Below, one piece after another: positions 50-9,064 of a stretch of 9,207 bases of DNA. How positions within the stretch are numbered: position 1 is the stretch's first letter; each line of letters begins with the position of its first letter. The stretch comes from Acidobacteriaceae bacterium. Its GTDB lineage: Bacteria > Acidobacteriota > Terriglobia > Terriglobales > Acidobacteriaceae. The position numbers and the translations under genes were made by a program. Below the pieces are notes generated by a model, which saw only the letters and a list, made by a program, of their open reading frames with translations, had not been told where the DNA came from and ran no database searches. The DNA lies in NCBI GenBank assembly GCA_025462805.1, contig JAOAPJ010000197.1, positions 1 through 9,207 of the forward strand, given 5' to 3'.

Positions 50-1363
50 TCAGCGCACCGGCTGCGCCTGCTCCATTGCAGCAATCGCCTGCCGCGCCGC
101 GGCGATAGTCGCGTTGACGATCTCCGGTGTGTGCGCTGTTCCGAGAAACGCCGCCTCGAACTGCGAGGGCGGCAGCCAAACGCCGGCATCCAGCATGGCG
201 CGGTGGAAGGCTCCAAAGCGCGCGGTATCCGAGGTCGCTGCGGTGGCAAAGTCCACCACCGGCTCCGCAGTGAAGAACCAGGTCCACATTGCGCCAATGC
301 GGTTCGTCGTTACTCCGAGGCCCGCACCGTGCAGCGCCGCTGCAACTCCCTCCGCCACGGCTTGGCTCGCCATCTCCAACTGACCGTAGATGGCTGTCAC
401 GTTCTTCGCCAGGAAGTCGAGCGTGGCGAATCCCGCAGCCATGGCCAGTGGGTTTCCGCTTAGCGTGCCCGCCTGGTAGACCGGACCGAGGGGCGCGAGC
501 AGGTTCATGATCTCTGCCCCGCCGCCGAAGGCGCCGCAGGGCAGTCCGCCGCCGATGATCTTGCCCAGGCAGGTCAGGTCTGGGGTAATGCCGTAGAGCT
601 GCTGCGCACCGCCATGCGCCACGCGGAAGCCGGTCATCACCTCGTCGAAGATCAGCAGCGCACCCTCGCGCTCAGTGAGCTCGCGCAGGCCGTCGAGGTA
701 GCCGGCGGCCGGCGCCACGCATCCCATGTTGCCGGCCACCGGTTCGAGGATCACCGCGGCAATCTCTCCCGGCCGCGCGGCGAAGGAGGCTTCCACAGCC
801 GCGAGATCGTTGTAGGGGAGCGCCAGCGTGAAGTGCGCAATCTCCTCGGGTACGCCGGCCGAGCCGGGAATGCCGAAGGTCGCCACACCGGAGCCGGCCT
901 TCACCAGCAGGCCGTCGGCGTGGCCGTGATAGCAGCCCTCGAACTTGATGATGTACTTGCGGCCGGTGAAGGCCCGCGCCAGCCGGATCGCCGACATCGT
1001 CGCCTCGGTGCCGGAGGAGACGAAGCGCAGCTTCTCGATCGAGGGCACCGCGGCAACCACCAGCTCGGCCAGATCGCCCTCGGCCGGGGTCGAAGCCCCG
1101 AAGCTCGCCGAGTGTGCCGCCGCATCCTGGATCGCCTCGACCGCAGGCGGAAAGGCGTGGCCCAGGATCATCGGCCCCCAGGAGCCGAAGTAGTCGATGT
1201 ATCGGTTGCCGTCGGCGTCCCAAAGGTAGGCGCCCTCGGCACGCACAACGAAAGGCGGGTCGCCGCCCACGGCGCGAAAGGCGCGCACCGGCGAGTCCAC
1301 TCCGCCGGGTAAGAGACGTTCCGCACGCTGCTGCAACTGCCGGGAGCGATCGAGTGTCCGCAT
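50..1363 (-). CDS. hemL: Glutamate-1-semialdehyde 2,1-aminomutase
   Basis: This cytosolic PLP enzyme isomerises glutamate-1-semialdehyde to 5-aminolevulinate, the last step of the C5 route to tetrapyrroles. The 437-residue product is of normal family length. Visible landmarks are [13 protein letters not shown] near the N-terminus (17-29), the cofactor-phosphate loop SSGTEA (116-121), YHGH (145-148), FDEVMTGFR with the PLP-nitrogen aspartate D240, the Schiff-base lysine K268 in [17 protein letters not shown], and the [16 protein letters not shown] segment (296-311). The start is supported by the N-terminal match to the family, but GGAGAGG abuts the ATG directly, so the ribosome-binding spacing is unusually tight. 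The gene is transcribed away from the insertion sequence and has no co-directional partner in the window. The function is secure by family knowledge. No frameshift or missing catalytic residue was seen. Confidence 0.97.
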
Positions 1364-2004: not shown

Positions 2005-2042
2005 CGGCAGATGCGGCTTCTGTCTGGTCTGTCAAAAATGTT
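2005..2042 (+). promoter_or_regulatory. Left part of interrupted operator module 1
   Basis: CGGCAGAT (2005-2012), a 17-nt spacer and TGTCAAAAATGTT (2030-2042) form the left part of a regulatory module whose right end, TGACA, now sits at 4202-4206 beyond the insertion sequence. The intact downstream copy (4212-4254) has the same CGGCAGAT, the same 17-nt spacer and TGTCAAA. With the first bases of the insertion sequence the site reads TGTCAAAAATGTTGGCCA (2030-2047), 16/18 matches to the reconstructed operator. Binding by the neighbouring XRE protein is inference. Confidence 0.65.
2035..2042 (+). repeat. Target-site duplication, left copy
   Basis: AAAATGTT directly abuts the left terminal inverted repeat and is repeated exactly at 4194-4201 after the right one. 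Eight base pairs is the usual duplication length for the IS1595 family. Confidence 0.93.
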
Positions 2043-2066
2043 GGCCATAATATACTTGACACACAA
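2043..2066 (+). repeat. Left terminal inverted repeat (24 bp)
   Basis: It starts GGCCATAATATA and ends TTGACACACAA. It pairs with the reverse complement of 4170-4193 with a single mismatch (C at 2055). The inner part contains TTGACA (2056-2061), a consensus -35 box pointing into the transposase gene. Confidence 0.95.
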
Positions 2067-2084
2067 ACCTATTCGGCGTACCTT
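2056..2084 (+). promoter_or_regulatory. Candidate transposase promoter
   Basis: A consensus -35 box TTGACA (2056-2061) lies within the left terminal repeat. Seventeen bases downstream is TACCTT (2079-2084), a poor -10 with three of six consensus matches. Transcription would begin close to the ATG at 2091. Together with the lack of a ribosome-binding site, this suggests a leaderless transcript. The -35 is clear, the -10 is not. Confidence 0.4.
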
Positions 2085-2090
2085 TTAAAC

Positions 2091-3029
2091 ATGGACACGC
2101 CCGAAACACTTCAGAAGGCCATCATTTACTTCAGCGATCCCGAGCGTTGCTTTGAGTACGCGAAGCAGCTTCGTTGGCCGGATGGAGTGGTGGCGTGTCC
2201 CCGTTGCGGCTCTGAGAAGCATTCGTTCATCAGCACTCGCAAGATTTGGTTCTGCAAGGGTTGCAAGAAGCAATTCACCCTCAAGGTTGGAACCATCTTC
2301 GAGGATTCGCCGCTCGGACTCGATAAGTGGCTATGCGCTTTGTGGATGCTTACCAACTGCAAGAACGGCGTCTCGTCTTACGAGGTTCACCGCGCCATCG
2401 GCGTCACTCAGAAGTCCGCTTGGTTCATGCTGCACCGTTTGCGCATGTTGATGCACGAAGATGACATTTCCCCGCTCTCTGGCGAAATCGAAATGGACGA
2501 AACATTCGTAGGCGGTAAGGCCAAGAACATGCACTCTAAGAAACGGGCCAAGGCTCTCAAGGCGAGCGGCACGTTCAAGGGGAAGACCATCGTTGTCGGG
2601 ATGCTGGAGCGCAAGGGGCGCGTTAAGGCTGAGGTCGTGGAGGCCCGTACACGCGAAGTCCTGCACGAGCTTGCTCACACGTCTATCGCTCCCGGCTCCA
2701 TCGTCATCACAGACGAGCATCATCCGTATCGCGGAATCAACTTTACTCACGAAGTCATCAACCATGCGGAAGCCTATGTGCGGGGCAATATCCATACGAA
2801 CGGAATCGAGAATTTCTGGAGCATGCTGAAGCGAACGTTGGGTGGAACCTACATCTCAGTCGAGCCTTTTCATCTATTCCGCTATATTGACGAACAAGCC
2901 TTTCGCTACAACAATCGCCGCGACGTGGACGACTTGGGTCGCTTTGAACTTGCGGCGCGTAACGTGGCTGGCAAGCGGTTAACCTATGCTGCACTCACAA
3001 GCGGTGCTGGCAGCGCCACGTCTCTCTAG
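2091..3029 (+). CDS. IS1595-family transposase (ISXO2-like)
   Basis: The 312-residue product moves the surrounding element. An N-terminal zinc ribbon (CPRCG with C36 and C39, CKGCKK with C55 and C58) is followed by a helix-turn-helix-like stretch (about 85-120) and the ISXO2-type catalytic domain. Putative catalytic residues are D136 in EMDETFVGG, D208 in VITDEHHPY, N237 (or E240) in HTNGIENFWSMLKR, and K247; the DDN(E)K arrangement is known for this family. The C-terminal FRYIDEQAFRYNNR motif (263-276) is typical as well. The frame is uninterrupted and of normal length. The ATG lies 48 bp inside the left end and has no recognisable Shine-Dalgarno sequence. A 34-aa N-terminal segment before the first zinc ligand resembles other family members, which supports this start. 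Confidence 0.95.
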   Translation: MDTPETLQKAIIYFSDPERCFEYAKQLRWPDGVVACPRCGSEKHSFISTRKIWFCKGCKKQFTLKVGTIFEDSPLGLDKWLCALWMLTNCKNGVSSYEVHRAIGVTQKSAWFMLHRLRMLMHEDDISPLSGEIEMDETFVGGKAKNMHSKKRAKALKASGTFKGKTIVVGMLERKGRVKAEVVEARTREVLHELAHTSIAPGSIVITDEHHPYRGINFTHEVINHAEAYVRGNIHTNGIENFWSMLKRTLGGTYISVEPFHLFRYIDEQAFRYNNRRDVDDLGRFELAARNVAGKRLTYAALTSGAGSATSL

Positions 3030-3035
3030 GAGGCG

Positions 3036-3070
3036 GCAAGGGCGCGGTAAACGTAAACACTAACCCTTGC
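3036..3070. other. Inverted repeat between convergent genes
   Basis: GCAAGGG (3036-3042) and CCCTTGC (3064-3070) are perfect 7-bp arms around a 21-nt loop that contains a tandem GTAAAC repeat (3047-3058). It lies just after the transposase stop and overlaps the end of the convergent small gene. It could be a bidirectional terminator, but neither side has a T-run. Confidence 0.3.
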
Positions 3071-3206
3071 TGGCCTTCTTCGTTTTACGCACTGCATGTC
3101 TCTTTGGCACAGGTTTAGCGCTAGACTTGGGAGCGCGGAAGACCTTCATTGCCACCTTCTCAAACTTCTCCGCAGCTTTCGGACCTTCATGGTATTCGTG
3201 TTTCAT
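3060..3206 (-). CDS. Small basic cargo protein, 48 aa
   Basis: A short gene convergent with the transposase encodes a 48-residue, strongly basic protein. It begins MKHEYHEGPKAAEKFEKVAM and ends in a Lys/Arg-rich tail (RKTKKASKG). The N-terminal pattern (MK-aromatic-EGP-A--FE) matches small hypothetical proteins that I recall from insertion-sequence contexts and acidobacterial genomes; this is memory, not a search. There is no signal peptide or membrane segment. The basic tail could contact nucleic acid, which is inference. A weak GGGAG lies 13 nt upstream of the ATG, inside the end of another - strand frame that stops only 8 nt before this start, so the two may be translated together. It lies inside the element and is therefore cargo or an accessory factor. 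Function unknown. Confidence 0.6.
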   Translation of the reverse strand: MKHEYHEGPKAAEKFEKVAMKVFRAPKSSAKPVPKRHAVRKTKKASKG

Positions 3207-3214
3207 AGTGCTAA

Positions 3215-3385
3215 TTATGCTCCCATAAGGGACAGACCGTGCCAGATGAAAGCAGCGGCCAACAGCCAGCCGGGAATGCCGAGCAGGGGTTTTCGTCGGT
3301 AAAGCAGGGCATAGTGGCTCAAGGTAGCAATGACGATTCCCGCGATAATGGCACAGCCACCAATAACCTTGCGAAGGATGTTCAC
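3215..3385 (-). CDS. Possible 56-aa two-helix membrane protein
   Basis: From a GTG at 3385 (preceded by GGTGATCC, complementary to the extended anti-Shine-Dalgarno) this frame encodes 56 residues. They contain two clear hydrophobic segments, about 7-29 (VIGGCAIIAGIVIATLSHYA region) and 36-55 (GIPGWLLAAAFIWHGLSLMG), separated by a positive YRRKP turn, as in a membrane hairpin. It stops 8 nt before the 48-aa gene on the same strand. It lies opposite the N-terminal part of the 292-aa + strand gene, so one of the two overlapping readings may be wrong: antisense of an Asn/Asp/Gln-rich segment is automatically hydrophobic. The frame stays open further upstream to 4255, but that part looks like shadow sequence. 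Low confidence. Confidence 0.25.
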   Translation of the reverse strand: MNILRKVIGGCAIIAGIVIATLSHYALLYRRKPLLGIPGWLLAAAFIWHGLSLMGA

Positions 3386-4117
3386 TGGATCACCCACGCT
3401 ACTTTTTGGAGTCAAGTCGGCCTTGGGCTGATTGGTCTCGTCGCGCTCTGGATTTACTACGGTCAACTCACCGAGATGAAGGAGGCCACGAAAGCCAGCG
3501 CTCAGGCTGCTAACGCCGCAGCTTCGGCAGCTACGATAGCCAAAGATGCTTTGGTAATAGGCAACAGACCGTGGATGAAGGTCGATCTCTCGCAAACTGC
3601 GCCGATAGAATTCCTCTCCGATGGGTCGGCCAAAATAGGTATTCAAGAAAGAGTTGAGAACGTCGGGTCCAGCGTCGCTTTGCATGTAGAGTCTTGGTTT
3701 GACATAGTCCCTGTGGGAACAATGACCAAGACTTTCGACGCCGCGAGAGTTAGACAAAAAGAGGGGTGCGATCCAAACAGAGTTCCTCAATCCACAATGA
3801 GCGGCTATGAAATGTTCCCGCATGACCCCGTAATCTATCCCTATAACGCGACCATTCCGAAGGACCATATTGTCCCTCTCAAAGACGGCGCCCCCACGAT
3901 GAGAGGGAAGGTAGGGCAGGTAGGGTTCATATTGACGGGCTGCGTAACTTATCGCTCGTCGTTTGAAGGCCCAACGGCTCAAAGTCACGCCACTCGTTTC
4001 GAGTACTGGATTGCGAAACCAGTAGAGAGAGGGGGCGTTACTCCATTTCTCGATCCAGTTGGAAGTCATCCCGATTACAGCCTTGTTCTGGTCCCGGATG
4101 GAATCACGGCAAATTAG
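3239..4117 (+). CDS. Single-pass membrane protein, IS cargo
   Basis: The 292-residue cargo protein has no assigned function. In order it shows a polar, Asn/Asp/Gln-rich N-terminus (1-48), one membrane helix (about 56-75, SQVGLGLIGLVALWIYYGQL), an Ala/Lys-rich probably helical segment (76-105), an NRPW motif (109-112), and a beta-rich C-terminal domain starting around 113 with a VENVGSS segment. This layout (helix, Ala-rich linker, RPW, beta-sandwich-like domain) is common among uncharacterised bacterial membrane proteins. The GTG start is preceded by AAGGGA at a 6-nt spacing. A second in-frame GTG at 3314 would remove 25 residues and most of the overlap with the antisense frame. It lies wholly between the terminal repeats of the element, so it travels with the transposase. 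A role in defence, regulation or stability of the element cannot be read from the sequence. Confidence 0.72.
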   Translation: MPDESSGQQPAGNAEQGFSSVKQGIVAQGSNDDSRDNGTATNNLAKDVHWITHATFWSQVGLGLIGLVALWIYYGQLTEMKEATKASAQAANAAASAATIAKDALVIGNRPWMKVDLSQTAPIEFLSDGSAKIGIQERVENVGSSVALHVESWFDIVPVGTMTKTFDAARVRQKEGCDPNRVPQSTMSGYEMFPHDPVIYPYNATIPKDHIVPLKDGAPTMRGKVGQVGFILTGCVTYRSSFEGPTAQSHATRFEYWIAKPVERGGVTPFLDPVGSHPDYSLVLVPDGITAN

Positions 4118-4145
4118 CAAGAACAGCAATAGACCTGTCATGGCA

Positions 4146-4168
4146 AGTAAGAAATAGCGCTTTTTACT
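4146..4168. terminator. Hairpin downstream of cargo gene
   Basis: AGTAAGAA (4146-4153) pairs with TTTTTACT (4161-4168), an 8-bp stem with one G-U pair and a 7-nt loop. It lies 28 nt after the cargo-gene stop and directly inside the right terminal repeat. It could end cargo transcription before the host operon, but the stem is AT-rich and no T-run follows. Confidence 0.3.
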
Positions 4169-4169
4169 A

Positions 4170-4193
4170 TTGTGTGTCAAATATATTATGGCC
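4170..4193 (-). repeat. Right terminal inverted repeat (24 bp)
   Basis: The reverse complement begins GGCCATAATATA and ends TTGACACACAA, matching 2043-2066 at 23 of 24 positions. On the + strand its TATATTAT (4182-4189) could act as an outward -10 box with TTTTTA (4161-4166) as a weak -35. That reading is speculative. Confidence 0.95.
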
Positions 4194-4206
4194 AAAATGT
4201 TTGACA
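4189..4206 (+). promoter_or_regulatory. Rebuilt operator 1 at right IS junction
   Basis: TGGCCAAAATGTTTGACA spans the last five bases of the insertion sequence, the 8-bp duplication and TGACA from the host. It matches the reconstructed original operator TGTCAAAAATGTTTGACA at 16 of 18 positions, because the insertion-sequence end partly mimics the lost half-site. It overlaps the putative -35 box of the operon at 4268. Confidence 0.55.
4194..4201 (+). repeat. Target-site duplication, right copy
   Basis: AAAATGTT follows the right terminal repeat and is identical to 2035-2042. Its last T completes the TTGACA at 4201-4206. Confidence 0.93.
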
Positions 4207-4230
4207 CGGCCCGGCAGATAGAGCTATGTT
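4201..4230 (+). promoter_or_regulatory. Putative promoter of membrane/XRE operon
   Basis: A consensus -35 TTGACA (4201-4206), an 18-bp spacer and TATGTT (4225-4230, four of six -10 matches) place transcription start near 4237, at the edge of operator 2. Operator 1 overlaps the -35, so occupancy of either operator would be expected to repress. The first T of the -35 comes from the target duplication, so the insertion preserved the box. Confidence 0.5.
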
Positions 4231-4236
4231 CTGCGA

Positions 4237-4254
4237 TGTCAAATATTTTTGACA
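4237..4254 (+). promoter_or_regulatory. Operator 2 palindrome
   Basis: TGTCAAATATTTTTGACA is an 18-bp near-perfect palindrome (8 of 9 arm positions), 16/18 identical to the reconstructed operator 1 whose centre lies 48 bp upstream. CGGCAGAT (4212-4219) precedes it by 17 nt, exactly as in module 1. It sits between the predicted transcription start and the Shine-Dalgarno of the gene at 4268. Autoregulation by the XRE protein encoded in this operon is the simplest reading (inference). Confidence 0.65.
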
Positions 4255-4267
4255 AGGGAGACGTTCC

Positions 4268-4696
4268 ATGGCGACAAGCCTTTCATACCGGGAGAAGTCT
4301 CTGTACGCCTCGCTAGCCGCGGAGCTCGTCGTGTACGGCCCCTACTTCGTCCTGCACCAGCAAAACTCAGTCAATAAGGTCGCAGGCATGATCATCGCAA
4401 TCATCGTGTTGCAGATGATCCTGCAGTCGGTGATCGCCGCTTTAACCCGCAATCGTGTCACAGACGAGCGGGATCGCTTAATTGAGCTGCGCGGTTATCG
4501 TGCAGGTTATCTCACGATCGCGTCACTCATGGTCGCCGGGCTGGGCATGTTGTGGTTTCACGCGACGGTCGGCCATCTTCGTTTGGACAACCGGATGGTA
4601 GGACTCCATTTTCTGAGCGTGTTCTTTGGCATGTTGGTGATCGCGGACATCACGAAGACCGCCGCGCAGATTGTGGCGTACCGGAGAGCGCTCTGA
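4268..4696 (+). CDS. Four-helix membrane protein paired with XRE regulator
   Basis: A 142-residue integral membrane protein with four predicted helices at about 10-29, 38-59, 78-101 and 109-137. A charged cytoplasmic-type loop between helices 2 and 3 contains TDERDRLIELRGYRAGY (65-81), the DERD-type motif seen in DUF2178-like small membrane proteins. The start is supported by AAGGGAG seven bases upstream. Its stop overlaps the start of the XRE gene by one base (TGATG), which indicates translational coupling. Small membrane proteins co-encoded with 65-75-residue XRE repressors are a recurring arrangement, for example CylR1 with CylR2 in Enterococcus. A sensor or modulator role is inferred from that pairing only. 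The duplicated operators lie immediately upstream, now disturbed by the insertion sequence. No catalytic motif was seen. Confidence 0.85.
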   Translation: MATSLSYREKSLYASLAAELVVYGPYFVLHQQNSVNKVAGMIIAIIVLQMILQSVIAALTRNRVTDERDRLIELRGYRAGYLTIASLMVAGLGMLWFHATVGHLRLDNRMVGLHFLSVFFGMLVIADITKTAAQIVAYRRAL

Positions 4697-4911
4697 TGCC
4701 CGCTATTCGCAATCAAATTCGCGAACTCCGGGGCCTGCGCGAGATGACGCAGCAGGAACTCGCCGATCGGGTCGGCGTGACACGTCAGACGGTCATCGCG
4801 ATCGAACAGGATAAGTATTCGCCTTCCCTTGAGACTGCGTTCAAAGTGGCAATCGTGCTTGGTGTGCCGCTCGAGCAGTGCTTCCAATACGACCCTAAGG
4901 GTAAGCGTTGA
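4696..4911 (+). CDS. Small XRE-family repressor (CylR2-like)
   Basis: The 71-residue protein consists almost entirely of a helix-turn-helix of the Cro/C1 (HTH_3) type. The recognition region is TQQELADRVGVTRQTVIAIE (18-37), followed by DKYSPSLETAFKVAIVLGVPLEQCF, a pattern closely resembling CylR2-like dimeric repressors. Proteins of this subfamily bind palindromic sites as dimers, often in their own promoter. The TGTCAAA-N4-TTTGACA palindromes upstream of the operon are natural candidate targets (inference). The ATG at 4696 is preferred over an upstream in-frame start at 4552, because the latter would give a 48-residue extension that merely overlaps the membrane-protein gene in another frame. 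The family assignment is firm, the regulon is not. Confidence 0.93.
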   Translation: MPAIRNQIRELRGLREMTQQELADRVGVTRQTVIAIEQDKYSPSLETAFKVAIVLGVPLEQCFQYDPKGKR

Positions 4912-5084: not shown

Positions 5085-5105
5085 CGTTTGAGAGAAACGA
5101 TTTTT
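5085..5105 (+). terminator. Weak terminator-like hairpin
   Basis: CGTTT (5085-5089) and AAACG (5095-5099) form a 5-bp stem with a GAGAG loop, followed by ATTTTT. It lies downstream of the XRE gene and ends at the stop codon of the convergent permease gene. The stem is short, so this is a weak candidate. Nothing else is apparent in 4912-5084. Confidence 0.3.
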
Positions 5106-7539
5106 ATCGCAGTGCCTGCATAGGATCCACTGTGGACGCGCGCGCAGCGGGTAAAAGGCAGGCGAATGCAGCAACGGCAAGTAGCAGAAAGGAAGCCCCC
5201 AACAGAATGAGAGGGCTTGCCGAGGCGTTCTCCACCCACTGCGCAATCAGACGGTTCAGTGCGAAGCTCAAGCCAAGGCCCGCGACGATGCCCAGGCCGA
5301 CACTTATTCCAGCGGACGTGAAGACAATCCTGAGCACATGCTGCCTCTGAGCACCGAGCGCCATTCGGATGCCAAATTCGTTCGTGCGCTGGATGACGGA
5401 GTAGGAGACCACGCTGTAGAGACCAACGGCGGCCAGGATCAGCGCCAGGATAGAAAAGGCGGCGAACAGGAGCGAAACGAGCCGTCCCCTGGCAAATGCC
5501 GGCTGATTTCTAATCCATGATTCCAGCAGGCCATCGTTCCAGAGGCTGGCCTGCTGGTCAGGATTCAAACCTGCGATCTGCTGCTTGACGCTATGGAGGA
5601 TGGAGCGCGGATCCACGCGGCTGCGCACAAGAATCTGCGTCCCCATCCACATATGGAGCGTGTAGGGCAGGTAAATCGCCGGTTTGACTGGCTTGTCCAG
5701 GCCATCATTCAGCACATCTGCCGTCACTCCGATGATCTGCAACCAGCCGTCACTGCCCGGCGCAACCAACCTTTCCTTGGAGCTGCCCTTCAGCTTCGCG
5801 ATCTTCACCGAGCCGCTCAGAACATTGCTGTTGGGGAAATAGTGCTTCACGAAGGTTTCATTCACGACCGCCAGCAAAGCGCCGTGCTCGACTTCTGCTT
5901 CCTCCCATAACCTGCCCGTCCTCAGCGGAATCCCCAAGGTGCGGAAATACCGGGAATCGACGAAGTCCACGTTTGCCTCCTGGTTTTCCGACGCTATTTT
6001 GCCGCGGAGTTCAATGGGCTGGTCCCAGCCGCTGTGTGGCGGAGTGGCGTTGGTGGAAATGCCAGTTGAGAGGACGTCCGGCAAGGTCGAGATCCTGTCT
6101 CGAAGCTGAGCGAAGTAATTCGCCCGCTCAGTCCACGTGGCAAAGGTATTTTCATGGACGGGGATTTCAACCGACATCACATTGTGTGGGTTGTAGCCGA
6201 GATTCACGTGCATCATGCGCACGAATTCTTGAATAGCCGCTCCCGCGGCGGTGAGCAAGAGCAGCGTCAGCGCGATTTGACCGGCGATCAGCCCAGAGTG
6301 GAGTCGTTTTCCGCGTACGCTCCCAGCCACCTTTCGCGTCGTCGATTGCATCACCTGGCTGATTTCCGGACGCGCAGACTGAAGAGCCGGAAACAGTCCA
6401 AAGAGTATTCCGGTGACCACGGCAAGTCCGACACTGAACAACAGCACGGGTACGTGTATGTGGAAGTCAGCCTCGTTGGGGAAGGACTGTTCAGGCAAGC
6501 GGGCGACGATCAAGCCAAGGCTCTGGTAGGCGAGAAGCACGCCGAAGCCCGCTCCGGTGAGAGCCAGGAGAAGTGATTCGGTAAGAAGCTGGCGGACGAT
6601 GCGGACCCTGCTGGCGCCGACTGCAGAGCGAACGGCAAACTCATGCTCACGAGCCGTGCCTTGCGCGAGCAGCAGAATAGAGACGTTGCCGCAGCCAATG
6701 ACCAGCAATAATCCTACCGCGCCAAAGAGAAGATAGAGCGTCTTGCTGATGGTGCGCAGAACCCAGTAGCTAAGGTTCTCGATTGCAATTTTCTTGTACT
6801 CCTTTGGATAGTGCTCGGGGGTTTGTCTCGCGAATTCGTGAAAGTAGGGTTGCAGGTCTGCCGAGGCGGCTTCCGGCTTGACGCCGGCTCTGAGTTTCAC
6901 GAAGGTGCCGTACTGTTCATTAGCAGAATCAGAGAGCTTTAGCGGGAGATAGACATCCGGGCCGAGGAATCCGAAATGGGGTGGCATGACTCCGATTACG
7001 GTGTAAGTCTTATGCACCAGCTGAATGGTCTTACCGACGATCGTGCGATCGCCGTTATAGTGACGGGCCCAGAATTTGTAGCTCAACACGATGACAGGTT
7101 GCGAGTCATGACCATCGGGTGCGTCGGACGGGAGGTAGTACCGACCCAGCATGGCAGGCACCCCAAGCATCTGAAACACGTTGCCAGTGAAATACAAGGC
7201 CTGGACATCTTCCGGCACGTCGCTGCCAGTGACTGTTAGGTTCCAGCTGTTGAACGCCACGACGTATTCCAGCGAGTGGGCTTTGGACAGCTCACGTGTC
7301 TGCGGGCCATTGAGGCCATAGCCCTGCTCTTTTCCAGATTTATCCAACAGTGCGACATCCGCAATGCGATCAGCTCCCTGATACGGCCACGGGTTCATGA
7401 TCACCGCGTAGATAATGCTGAAGACCGAGACCGTCGCGCCAATACCCAAGGCCAGGGAAAGAACCGCCGTCAGTGACACAACAGGGTTCTTGACGAGCTG
7501 CCGCAGCGCGTAGCGCAAATCCTGAAGGAATGTCGACAT
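5104..7539 (-). CDS. ADOP-family duplicated orphan ABC permease
   Basis: The 811-residue membrane protein belongs to the acidobacterial duplicated orphan permease (ADOP) group, MacB/FtsX-like permeases in which the unit is duplicated and no ATPase is encoded alongside. Seen in order: a conserved start (MSTFLQDLRYALRQLVKNP), helix 1 (22-45), a MacB-like extracytoplasmic core (about 50-245), and the first FtsX unit with helices near 268-292, 324-346 and 365-388, with EFAVRSAVGASR (300-311) between the first two. A second helix follows (415-437), then a second core (about 445-670), and the second FtsX unit (688-713, 735-760, 777-799) with EFGIRMALGAQR (721-732). The C-terminus is the characteristic PAARASTVDPMQALR. 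The ATG at 7539 follows AGGTG at a good distance. An 84-residue upstream extension stays open but does not match the family. The substrate is unknown; macrolide or peptide export is only a family analogy. No PadR-type regulator, the common ADOP neighbour, is present. Confidence 0.93.
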   Translation of the reverse strand: MSTFLQDLRYALRQLVKNPVVSLTAVLSLALGIGATVSVFSIIYAVIMNPWPYQGADRIADVALLDKSGKEQGYGLNGPQTRELSKAHSLEYVVAFNSWNLTVTGSDVPEDVQALYFTGNVFQMLGVPAMLGRYYLPSDAPDGHDSQPVIVLSYKFWARHYNGDRTIVGKTIQLVHKTYTVIGVMPPHFGFLGPDVYLPLKLSDSANEQYGTFVKLRAGVKPEAASADLQPYFHEFARQTPEHYPKEYKKIAIENLSYWVLRTISKTLYLLFGAVGLLLVIGCGNVSILLLAQGTAREHEFAVRSAVGASRVRIVRQLLTESLLLALTGAGFGVLLAYQSLGLIVARLPEQSFPNEADFHIHVPVLLFSVGLAVVTGILFGLFPALQSARPEISQVMQSTTRKVAGSVRGKRLHSGLIAGQIALTLLLLTAAGAAIQEFVRMMHVNLGYNPHNVMSVEIPVHENTFATWTERANYFAQLRDRISTLPDVLSTGISTNATPPHSGWDQPIELRGKIASENQEANVDFVDSRYFRTLGIPLRTGRLWEEAEVEHGALLAVVNETFVKHYFPNSNVLSGSVKIAKLKGSSKERLVAPGSDGWLQIIGVTADVLNDGLDKPVKPAIYLPYTLHMWMGTQILVRSRVDPRSILHSVKQQIAGLNPDQQASLWNDGLLESWIRNQPAFARGRLVSLLFAAFSILALILAAVGLYSVVSYSVIQRTNEFGIRMALGAQRQHVLRIVFTSAGISVGLGIVAGLGLSFALNRLIAQWVENASASPLILLGASFLLLAVAAFACLLPAARASTVDPMQALR

Positions 7540-7762
7540 AAGCACACCTGGCGGTGGCACGGGATGAAGAACATGATTGCATGTAGTTGCTGCTCGAGCC
7601 AGGTTGATTCCACGTTCATCATTCAATGGCGCCCACGCGCTCATTGAAGCGCCCGATTGGTAATGAAATGAGGGCTTCGGATCAGTAAGAGACCAGAAGC
7701 ACTGGCAAGCCGGAAGCATCCTCCACTCGCGATGGAGCGCATCCGATAAGCTGCTGGTGGGC

Positions 7763-9064
7763 ATGCGGATTGTTCTCACCACCTTCGGCACGCTGGGCGA
7801 TGTTCATCCATTGATCGCGATCGCCCTGGAGATGCGGCGCCGGGGCCATACACCAGTGCTGGCGGTGCCGGAGATCTTCCGGCAGAAGATCGAGCCGCTG
7901 GGCCTTGAGTTTGCGAAGGTCGGGCCCACGCTGCGCCCCGACGATCCGCAGCAGGTCGCCATGCTGATGGACATCCACAAGGGGACCGAGCGCACTCTGC
8001 GCGAGGTGCTGTTCCCCGTCATCCGGCAGAGTTATGACGAGCTGCTCGCCGCCGTCCAGAGTGGTGGTGGCGCGGATCTGCTGCTGGCGGGCGAGCTCAC
8101 GTATCAGGCGCCGGTGGTTGCCGAGGTCACCGGCGTTCCCTGGGGCAGCTATGTGCTGGCACCGCTCTCTTTTTTCTCCGCCTACGACGCGCCGGTGTTG
8201 CCGCCCTACCCGGGGCTGGCGCGCCTGCAGAGCGCGGTGCCGCTGACCGGCCATGCCGTGACGCGCTTTGCCCGCTGGGTGACACGCCGCTGGGCGGAGC
8301 CGGTCTATGGCCTGCGCGCCGAGTTTGGACTGGACCGCGGCGCGAACGTGATCTTCGACGCCAAGCATGCGCCCGATCTGGTGCTGGCGCTGTTCTCGCC
8401 GATGCTGGGACGGCCGCAGCCCGACTGGCCGGAGAACACTGAGATCACCGGGTTTGTCTTCTACGACGGCGATGCCGGCAAGCAGGACCTCTCCGATGAG
8501 CTCGAGCAGTTCCTCCAAGCTGGGGAGCCGCCGGTGGTCTTCACGCTGGGCTCGGCGGCTGTGCTGGACGCCGGCCCCTTTTATGAGGAGAGCGCCCGGG
8601 CGGCGCTGCTGGCCGGTCTGCGCGCCGTGCTGCTGGTGGGCACCGACCCGCGCAATCAGCCGGCGATCCACTCTCCCGGCATCTGCGTTGCACGGTACGC
8701 GCCGTACTCGAAGCTGTTTTCGCGCGCCTCACTGGTCGTGCACCAGGGTGGCGTCGGCACTACGGCGCAGGCCATGCAGGCAGGCAGGCCCATGCTGGTG
8801 ATGCCCTATAGTCATGATCAACCGGACAACGCCCGGCGCATGCGCCGGCTGGGCATTGCGGGCGTCATCCGCCGCCAGGACTACACGGCCGAGCGAGCGG
8901 CCCGGCGCATCCGCCGCATCCTGGGCCATCCCCGCTTCGCAGCACGCGCGGCCGAGATCGGCGGACTACTCCACAGAGAAAACGGGCTGGCCCATGCCTG
9001 CGACGCACTGGAGGTCATGGGCAGACAGGCAGCACCTCGCGAACAATATTCCAAACACCCATAA
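7763..9064 (+). CDS. GT1-type (UGT/MGT-like) glycosyltransferase
   Basis: The 433-residue enzyme probably transfers a sugar from a nucleotide-sugar donor to a lipid or small-molecule acceptor. The fold is the two-Rossmann GT-B type. The N-terminus MRIVLTTFGTLGDVHPLIAI carries the glycine turn of the acceptor domain. The donor-binding domain shows FTLGSA (around residue 260), HQGGVGTTAQAMQAGRP (327 onward) and a DQPDNA segment (D352, Q353, N356), the hallmark of UDP-sugar-type donors in this family. Length is normal. The ATG at 7763 gives the usual family N-terminus; an in-frame GTG at 7757 would add two residues. Neither start has a convincing Shine-Dalgarno. It diverges from the permease across 223 bp and is followed 39 nt later by the next gene on the same strand. 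Acceptor and donor cannot be told from sequence. Confidence 0.9.
   Translation: MRIVLTTFGTLGDVHPLIAIALEMRRRGHTPVLAVPEIFRQKIEPLGLEFAKVGPTLRPDDPQQVAMLMDIHKGTERTLREVLFPVIRQSYDELLAAVQSGGGADLLLAGELTYQAPVVAEVTGVPWGSYVLAPLSFFSAYDAPVLPPYPGLARLQSAVPLTGHAVTRFARWVTRRWAEPVYGLRAEFGLDRGANVIFDAKHAPDLVLALFSPMLGRPQPDWPENTEITGFVFYDGDAGKQDLSDELEQFLQAGEPPVVFTLGSAAVLDAGPFYEESARAALLAGLRAVLLVGTDPRNQPAIHSPGICVARYAPYSKLFSRASLVVHQGGVGTTAQAMQAGRPMLVMPYSHDQPDNARRMRRLGIAGVIRRQDYTAERAARRIRRILGHPRFAARAAEIGGLLHRENGLAHACDALEVMGRQAAPREQYSKHP

What the first reader, a model, noticed from the sequence alone, without database searches (positions are those of the whole stretch)
2030..4206. Insertion sequence sits exactly on the dyad of an operator palindrome
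Removing 2043-4193 and one copy of the 8-bp duplication joins TGTCA + AAAATGTT + TGACA into the 18-bp near-palindrome TGTCAAAAATGTTTGACA. The duplicated 8 bp are precisely the central 8 of the 18 (5+8+5), so insertion was symmetric about the dyad. This suggests the IS1595-type transposase recognises palindromic operators as targets rather than merely AT-rich DNA.
Basis: partly seen in the sequence, partly recalled or inferred. Interest (0 to 1): 0.75.

Follow-up and report, generated by a model that had tools for sequence, protein, structure and literature searches.

The report
Jumping gene centred on regulator operator
A bacterial jumping gene has landed exactly in the middle of a conserved palindromic control site of a small regulatory operon, a site that a related element has apparently hit independently in another genome, although most insertions of this group of elements are not on palindromes.

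Summary
A 2151-bp IS1595-family element (2043-4193) with an 8-bp duplication splits TGTCAAAAATGTTTGACA 5+8+5. The 18-mer is very probably a real operator: all 19 homologous operons with at least 45% identity carry the same tandem pair of dyads 46-48 bp apart, and the window keeps its second dyad intact (4237-4254). In 18 of the 19 no IS end is seen at the distal dyad. In the other (G376) the right end of a decayed relative stands in the same register, and both gene trees favour an independent insertion.

The generalisation holds only in part. In 157 sites of the clade (window excluded, look-alike targets merged) the duplications are dyad-symmetric beyond composition (267 complementary pairs, 216 expected), with symmetry about 3 bp outward (P=0.004). 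But only 16 of 157 have strongly palindromic flanks (7 expected, P=0.002). Four palindromic targets in three genomes are dispersed repeats.

Best reading: a two-fold-symmetric transposase complex prefers loosely self-complementary AT-rich 8-mers and is favoured by, not restricted to, strong dyads, as in IS30 hot spots and REP-targeting elements. My searches showed no such report for IS1595. What is recognised (bare DNA, hairpin, regulator-bound operator) is not shown.

The parts
2030..2034 (+). left arm TGTCA of the split distal operator
   Evidence: matching dyad in homologues
2035..2042 (+). target duplication, left copy AAAATGTT
2043..4193 (+). IS1595-family element, 2151 bp
2043..2066 (+). 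left terminal inverted repeat, tip GGCCATAATATACTTGACACACAA
2091..3029 (+). IS1595-type transposase, 312 aa
3239..4117 (+). cargo (passenger) frame of the element, 292 aa, GTG start, no known family
   Evidence: no match
4170..4193 (-). right terminal inverted repeat
4194..4201 (+). target duplication, right copy AAAATGTT
4202..4206 (+). right arm TGACA of the split distal operator
4201..4206 (+). -35-like hexamer TTGACA, kept intact by the insertion
   Evidence: consensus match only
4225..4230 (+). -10-like hexamer TATGTT, spacer 18
   Evidence: consensus match only
4237..4254 (+). second (proximal) operator dyad TGTCAAATATTTTTGACA, intact
4268..4696 (+). 142-aa protein, hydrophobic by eye (no membrane predictor was run), no known family; first gene of the operon
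   Evidence: homologues
4696..4911 (+). 71-aa Cro/CI-type (HTH_3) regulator, CylR2-like, start overlapping the stop of the previous gene
   Evidence: Pfam 2.5e-17; 1utx E 1.1e-12

Best explanation
A recent IS1595-family insertion struck the distal of two tandem operators that precede an operon of a small, hydrophobic-looking protein and a CylR2-like regulator. The 5+8+5 geometry reflects a two-fold-symmetric transposase-target complex that makes an 8-bp staggered cut. In this clade it favours loosely self-complementary, AT-rich 8-mers (about CTAATTAG), with symmetry still felt about 3 bp further out. Strong dyads, including this operator and some dispersed palindromic repeats, are therefore preferred but not required. 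Shown here: the geometry, the conserved pair of dyads, a second element end in the same register in another genome, the statistical dyad symmetry and its minority character in the flanks. Inferred: that the second hit is independent, that a dimeric transposase reads the symmetry directly, that the regulator binds these dyads, and that the operon keeps a promoter and part of its self-control because the -35 half and the second dyad remain.
For: Geometry. Operator: two dyads in 19 of 19 homologues with at least 45% identity; 20 of 24 matches of the 18-mer (up to 1 mismatch) in 13 genomes lie upstream of this operon. Second hit in the same register in G376, two changes on both trees. Dyad symmetry on 157 sites: duplication 267 complementary pairs against 216.4 expected, none of 5000 re-dealings as high; flank pairs 1-3 152 against 124.3, P 0.0036; four or more of six flank pairs 16 against 7.05, P 0.002. 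Offset centres of 1 to 8 bp give 3 to 9 such sites where the true centre gives 17 (162 sites, L156 included). Two different elements on the axis of one repeat in G010, others on repeats in G009 and G044.
Against: 141 of 157 sites lack strong flank symmetry. The first batch gave a much stronger signal than the later ones: 4 of 41 with five or more of six flank pairs (window excluded), then 1 of 79 (L156, a miscalled end, later dropped) and 0 of 47. Pair 3 inside the duplication shows no covariation (55 against 54.5), and singly only pairs 2 and 4 of the duplication and flank pair 3 pass P 0.05. Three large groups of look-alike targets, 18 of 173 sites, are hot spots that are not centred palindromes. 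In another IS1595-family element, ISApl4, 35 published duplications show no symmetry beyond composition (61 pairs against 63.1). The left junction in G376 is lost. No binding or transposition was measured.
Confidence: 0.6

Rival explanations
1. The dyad is reached through something other than its sequence symmetry: a hairpin or cruciform extruded by the palindrome, or the regulator protein bound there, attracts or positions the transposase.
For: Flank symmetry is covariation almost without consensus (0.07 bit or less per position), as expected if pairing itself matters. Four insertions lie on dispersed palindromes. The window and G376 insertions are both at a dyad next to its own regulator gene.
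Against: Symmetry is strongest inside the 8-bp cut site and fades after about 3 flank pairs, which fits a protein complex better than long stems. Symmetry inside the 8 bp persists in the 141 sites without palindromic arms (231 against 192.5, P 0.0004).
Confidence: 0.2
2. Coincidence at this site: an AT-rich, fairly symmetric 8-mer in a promoter was hit, and it happens to be the centre of an operator.
For: Most sites of the clade are not on palindromes (141 of 157). Duplications are AT-rich (65%) and operators often have AT-rich centres (recalled, not tested).
Against: A second element stands in exactly this register in an orthologous operator, with two origins on both trees. There is a centred excess in the clade without the window.
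Confidence: 0.12
3. The element is drawn to TTGAC motifs like the one in its own inverted repeat, as IS30 is to its own ends; the operator is hit because its arms carry TTGACA.
For: The operator arm TTTGACAC and the inverted repeat share TTGACAC. IS30 has such a second specificity (PMC9333248, passages). L348 lies against what looks like another element's end, and L055 next to an end-like stretch.
Against: TTGAC/GTCAA occurs in 13 of 157 rebuilt 40-bp sites against 8.3 expected from the same loci (no P computed, a weak excess at most). TTGACA is also the -35 consensus.
Confidence: 0.05
4. One ancestral insertion in this operator, inherited by both the window and G376, so that there is no recurrence.
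For: Transposase (68%) and operon proteins (54% and 72%) are diverged to a similar degree.
Against: Closer relatives of the window, such as L361 (94%), show no IS at the dyad. Two changes are needed on the operon tree and on the transposase tree, and 0% of 200 bootstrap trees have one; the operon bootstrap had not settled. The window's element has intact ends, duplication and transposase frame.
Confidence: 0.03

Closest known systems
IS1595-family insertion sequences, for example ISApl4 (PMC12561309; passages and tables seen)
   Same: Transposase family, 8-bp duplications, GG-type inverted ends, AT-rich targets.
   Different: ISApl4 is 712 bp without cargo, and its 35 listed duplications show no symmetry beyond composition. 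Elements of this clade with called ends are 1583-6052 bp long (173 elements) and have symmetric duplications.
REP-targeting insertion sequences such as ISPsy8 and ISRm22 (Tobes and Pareja 2006, PMC1525189; abstract and passages)
   Same: Insertion on the symmetry axis of palindromic repeats; L019, L042, L016 and L152 do the same.
   Different: The families named in the passages seen are IS3, IS110 and IS4, and 'IS1595' does not occur in that text. The window's target is a local operator, not a dispersed repeat.
IS30 (PMC9333248; passages)
   Same: Prefers nearly palindromic hot spots and has a second specificity for its own inverted repeats.
   Different: Another transposase family. Next-to-own-end insertion here rests on one or two loci.
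Palindromic target motifs of TIR and LTR elements in Drosophila (PMC3276498; passages)
   Same: Symmetric, often AT-rich target motif that extends beyond the duplication, explained by multimeric complexes with two-fold symmetry.
   Different: There a sequence motif; here the flank symmetry is covariation almost without consensus.
CylR2-type regulators (structure 1utx)
   Same: Short Cro/CI-type protein, E 1.1e-12.
   Different: Match by sequence only; DNA binding, partner and regulated genes were not tested.

Membership tests
IS1595 family | IS1595-type transposase domain and zinc ribbon | tested here: met
   Pfam DDE_Tnp_IS1595 and Zn_ribbon_IS1595; NCBIfam transpos_IS1595 178.8 bits, cut-off 75
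IS1595 family | 8-bp target duplication | tested here: met
   exact in the window; an exact 8-bp duplication was the condition for counting the 194 copies with called ends, so those do not test it
IS1595 family | catalytic and HxNGIENFW motifs as printed for ISApl4 | tested here: met
   by eye: MDETFVGG, VITDE, HTNGIENFWSMLK in the window protein against the motif quoted in PMC12561309
REP-targeting insertion sequences | insertion on the axis of a dispersed palindromic repeat | tested here: not met
   for the window: the 18-mer has 1 to 3 sites per genome in 13 relatives. It is met for L019, L042, L016 and L152. The window's own genome is not held
IS30-like dual target choice | near-palindromic hot spots | tested here: inconclusive
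   centred excess is real but small: 16 of 157 against 7.05; the operator and the G010 repeat were each hit twice
IS30-like dual target choice | insertion next to its own inverted repeats | tested here: inconclusive
   end-like stretch within 20 bp in 3 of 173 sites, one of them doubtful
Self-regulated CylR2-like operon | Cro/CI-type regulator with dyads at its own promoter | tested here: met
   HTH_3; both dyads in 19 of 19 homologues; promoter-like match
Self-regulated CylR2-like operon | regulator binds the dyads and represses | not testable with these tools
   needs a binding and a reporter assay

The most novel reading that the evidence does not exclude
This sub-clade of IS1595 elements uses the operator dyad as a safe landing pad. 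The 8-bp duplication copies the operator centre, and the element's own tip (TGGCC in the window, TGTCC in G376, read outward) stands in for the lost half TGTCA, so that a near-operator and the -35 are rebuilt at the downstream junction and the operon keeps its control. CA at tip positions 4-5 is otherwise rare: at both ends in 1 of 173 elements, the window's, and at one end of one other, L207, whose target is also palindromic (site). The rebuilt 18-mer has 2 mismatches in the window and 1 in G376.
Probability: 0.1. Interest if true: 0.75.

Novelty: new variant of a known kind. Interest (0 to 1): 0.45.

Why it matters
It turns a chance-looking coincidence into a testable rule for a large IS family whose targets have been described as A/T-rich (ISApl4, PMC12561309): in this clade the transposase complex seems to read two-fold symmetry, and self-regulated operators and dispersed palindromes can be recurrent landing sites. 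If shown, some insertion hot spots could be predicted from operator dyads, and the question of what DDE transposases see in palindromic targets (sequence, shape, hairpin or bound protein) could be tested with one natural 18-bp site.

Tried and rejected
Whole-genome search of the window's own genome: none is held, so other copies in the same genome could not be examined.

The simple statistic on the first 45 sites looked very strong (6 with 5 or more of 6 flank pairs, window included). Enlarging the set to 168 and splitting it by time of fetching showed a weaker effect: window excluded, 4 of 41, then 1 of 79, then 0 of 47. I report the pooled, collapsed figure. L156 was dropped because its ends were called inside a tandem repeat.

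Preference growing with similarity to the window's transposase: no clear trend over quartiles (four or more of six: 4 of 41, 6 of 42, 6 of 42, 2 of 42; L156 still included). Of the window's own sub-clade of four (support 92/91) two sit at this operator, L001 on a 14-bp perfect palindrome and L256 on none; too few to count.

TTGAC attraction: 13 of 157 against 8.3 expected, not convincing. L039's palindrome as a dispersed repeat: no, only its own two junctions matched.

One ancestral insertion shared by the window and G376: disfavoured (see rivals). The bootstrap of the operon tree had not settled (correlation 0.942).
Full report
What is there. The element spans 2043-4193, carries an IS1595-type transposase and a cargo frame of 292 aa without a known family, has inverted ends that agree at 21 of 22 positions, and is flanked by an exact 8-bp duplication.

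The palindrome is very probably an operator. An intact second copy, TGTCAAATATTTTTGACA, begins 48 bp downstream of the (rebuilt) first, in front of a 142-aa protein that looks hydrophobic and an overlapping 71-aa HTH_3 regulator. The regulator's best natural match among solved structures is CylR2 (1utx, E 1.1e-12). A sigma-70-like promoter (TTGACA-18-TATGTT, 10 of 12) takes its -35 from the right half of the split dyad, and the second dyad lies just downstream of the -10; this is a consensus match (5 such in the region, 1.7 expected in shuffles). I searched 300 genomes of one family (30 with a match at E 1e-5) and 399 of one class (12 at E 1e-20, two of them new) for the 142-aa protein. 31 homologues could be aligned and one, L387, could not. 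19 have at least 45% identity, and all 19 carry both dyads (up to 3 mismatches in the 14 fixed positions), 46-48 bp apart, the distal one 66-87 bp before the start codon as I placed it. Of the 12 more distant ones, 3 carry two such matches, 7 one and 2 none. In 13 genomes the 18-mer with up to one mismatch has 24 forward matches: 20 upstream of this operon and 4 elsewhere (G270:C6, G101:C7, G573:C47, G594:C19). It is thus mainly a local site. Binding is not shown.

Recurrence. In 18 of the 19 homologues I see no IS end at the distal dyad. In L373 (genome G376; 54% identity in the first protein, 72% in the regulator) the upstream DNA reads ...GTGCGTCAAGTATGTTATGTCC followed by AAAATATTTGACA: the right end of an IS1595 element in the same register as in the window. 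The window's last 37 bases, end plus operator half, align there at 86%. About 1.8 kb further up ends a decayed transposase, 68% identical over residues 74-309, with one stop codon; its N-terminal part and left end were not found. On the tree of the operon's proteins (20 rows) and on that of the transposases (31 rows) the two insertions need two changes, and none of 200 bootstrap trees joins them. On the latter its sister is L256, which is inserted elsewhere at a non-palindromic site. So the same dyad was probably hit twice. The left junction in G376 is lost, so the duplication there cannot be checked.

Other copies. From one scan of genome contigs, one search of the genomes behind some of these loci, three further genome searches with the transposase, nine region fetches and one viral scan I had 364 transposase hits, some of them the same place fetched twice. 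194 have matching ends, an exact 8-bp duplication and enough flank; 174 of these are unique. L156 was dropped as miscalled, leaving 173. Without the window and after merging sites alike at 24 or more of 40 positions, 157 remain. The 170 hits without usable ends (contig edges, decay, inexact duplications) were not counted.

Results on the 157 sites. Complementary pairs inside the duplication: 267 observed, 216.4 expected when left and right halves are re-dealt among sites (none of 5000 as high). Flank pairs 1-3: 152 against 124.3 (P 0.0036). Pairs 4-6: 126 against 120.7 (P 0.30). Pairs 7-14: 293 against 315.5 (P 0.93). Singly, only duplication pairs 2 and 4 (counted from the dyad) and flank pair 3 pass P 0.05; duplication pair 3 shows nothing (55 against 54.5). 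Four or more of six flank pairs: 16 against 7.05 (P 0.002); five or more: 4 against 1.0 (P 0.018). A background from the same loci, matched for duplication score and available for 110 sites, gives 7.05 expected where 17 of 162 are seen (P 0.001; L156 still in). Offset centres of 1-8 bp give 3-9 instead of 17. The symmetry inside the 8 bp remains in the 141 sites without palindromic arms (231 against 192.5, P 0.0004). The signal was uneven between batches: window excluded, sites with five or more of six were 4 of 41 in the first batch, 1 of 79 (L156) in the second and 0 of 47 in the third. The consensus of the duplication is CTAATTAG at 42-54% per position; the flanks carry 0.07 bit or less per position. 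A published list of 35 ISApl4 duplications, another IS1595-family element, shows no symmetry beyond composition (61 against 63.1; list).

What the other palindromes are. In G010 two different elements (L019, 3526 bp; L042, 2305 bp) sit on the axis of CTGAAACC-N6-GGTTTCAG. Its pattern has 69 forward matches with up to 2 mismatches in that genome, against 2 for the reversed pattern. G010 has 9 transposase matches in all. L016 in G009 and L152 in G044 sit on AGRTCTC...GAGAYCT-type palindromes with 18 and 28 forward matches (up to 3 mismatches) against 0 and 2. L039's palindrome is not repeated. The rest of the 16 were not followed up. Besides, 28 of 173 sites fall into 8 groups of look-alike targets at 24 or more of 40 positions. 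On 174 sites there were 59 pairs at 22 or more of 40, against 2 in a roughly scaled off-register control. The three largest groups (8, 5 and 5 sites) share by eye a unit of the type GATTC-N-AAAG next to TTAG/CTAA-like bases in the duplication and do not look like centred palindromes.

How it most likely works. A symmetric transposase complex takes a target with its two-fold axis on the dyad; the nearer the 8 bp and about 3 bp beyond come to self-complementarity, the better the site. Operators and palindromic repeats are then simply among the best such sites. This is the view taken for TIR elements in Drosophila (PMC3276498, passages), and it is close to what is known of IS30 (PMC9333248, passages) and of REP-targeting elements (PMC1525189, abstract and passages). 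Attraction by a hairpin or by the bound regulator is not excluded.

Literature. Searches for IS1595 with target site (34 papers, 20 listed), IS1595 family with palindrom (5 papers, listing only), palindromic-target terms, REP, IS30 and IS1595 with Acidobacteria or passenger showed me no report of dyad-symmetric or operator targeting by IS1595 elements. Of the papers listed I looked into four only: PMC12561309, PMC1525189, PMC3276498 and PMC9333248. The library lacks most subscription papers. The family paper of Siguier and others (2009) was seen only as a reference.

Verdict.

Noticed in passing
window 3239-4117; L256 2601-3665; L215 (reverse strand): The element carries a 292-aa cargo frame without a known family. 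Elements of the clade with called ends are 1583-6052 bp long (median 2386), so cargo is probably common. L256 and the G376 element also have cargo frames, one in the latter resembling ClpP by eye. The window's cargo matches L256's over only 18 residues, and no significant match to the G376 cargo was found.
   Followed up: partly
L216, L296, L307, L313, L318, L334, L343, L350; L037, L043, L245, L270, L349; L118, L151, L184, L198, L213: Eighteen insertions in three groups share look-alike targets in register, built of a unit near GATTC-N-AAAG that recurs in direct and inverted copies in the flanks. A dispersed Acidobacterial repeat or binding-site array seems to be a hot spot for these elements; its nature is unknown.
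   Followed up: partly
G010 (loci L391-L400): About 70 copies of a palindrome CTGAAACC-N6-GGTTTCAG in a 3.9-Mb Binatota-like genome, in several copies preceded by CGAAGCCCGCAT and GGGAAG; function unknown.
   Followed up: partly
L348, L055: One insertion abuts what looks like the end of another IS1595 element and one lies beside an end-like stretch, which recalls the second target specificity of IS30.
   Followed up: no
window 4268-4911; L361-L377, L401, L402: A conserved operon of a 142-aa hydrophobic-looking protein and a CylR2-like regulator with two dyads 46-48 bp apart; what it regulates besides itself is not known.
   Followed up: partly
window 50-1363 (-), 5104-7791 (-), 7757-9064 (+): Neighbouring genes look ordinary: a class-III aminotransferase, a MacB/FtsX-type permease and a UDP-glycosyltransferase-like protein.
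   Followed up: no
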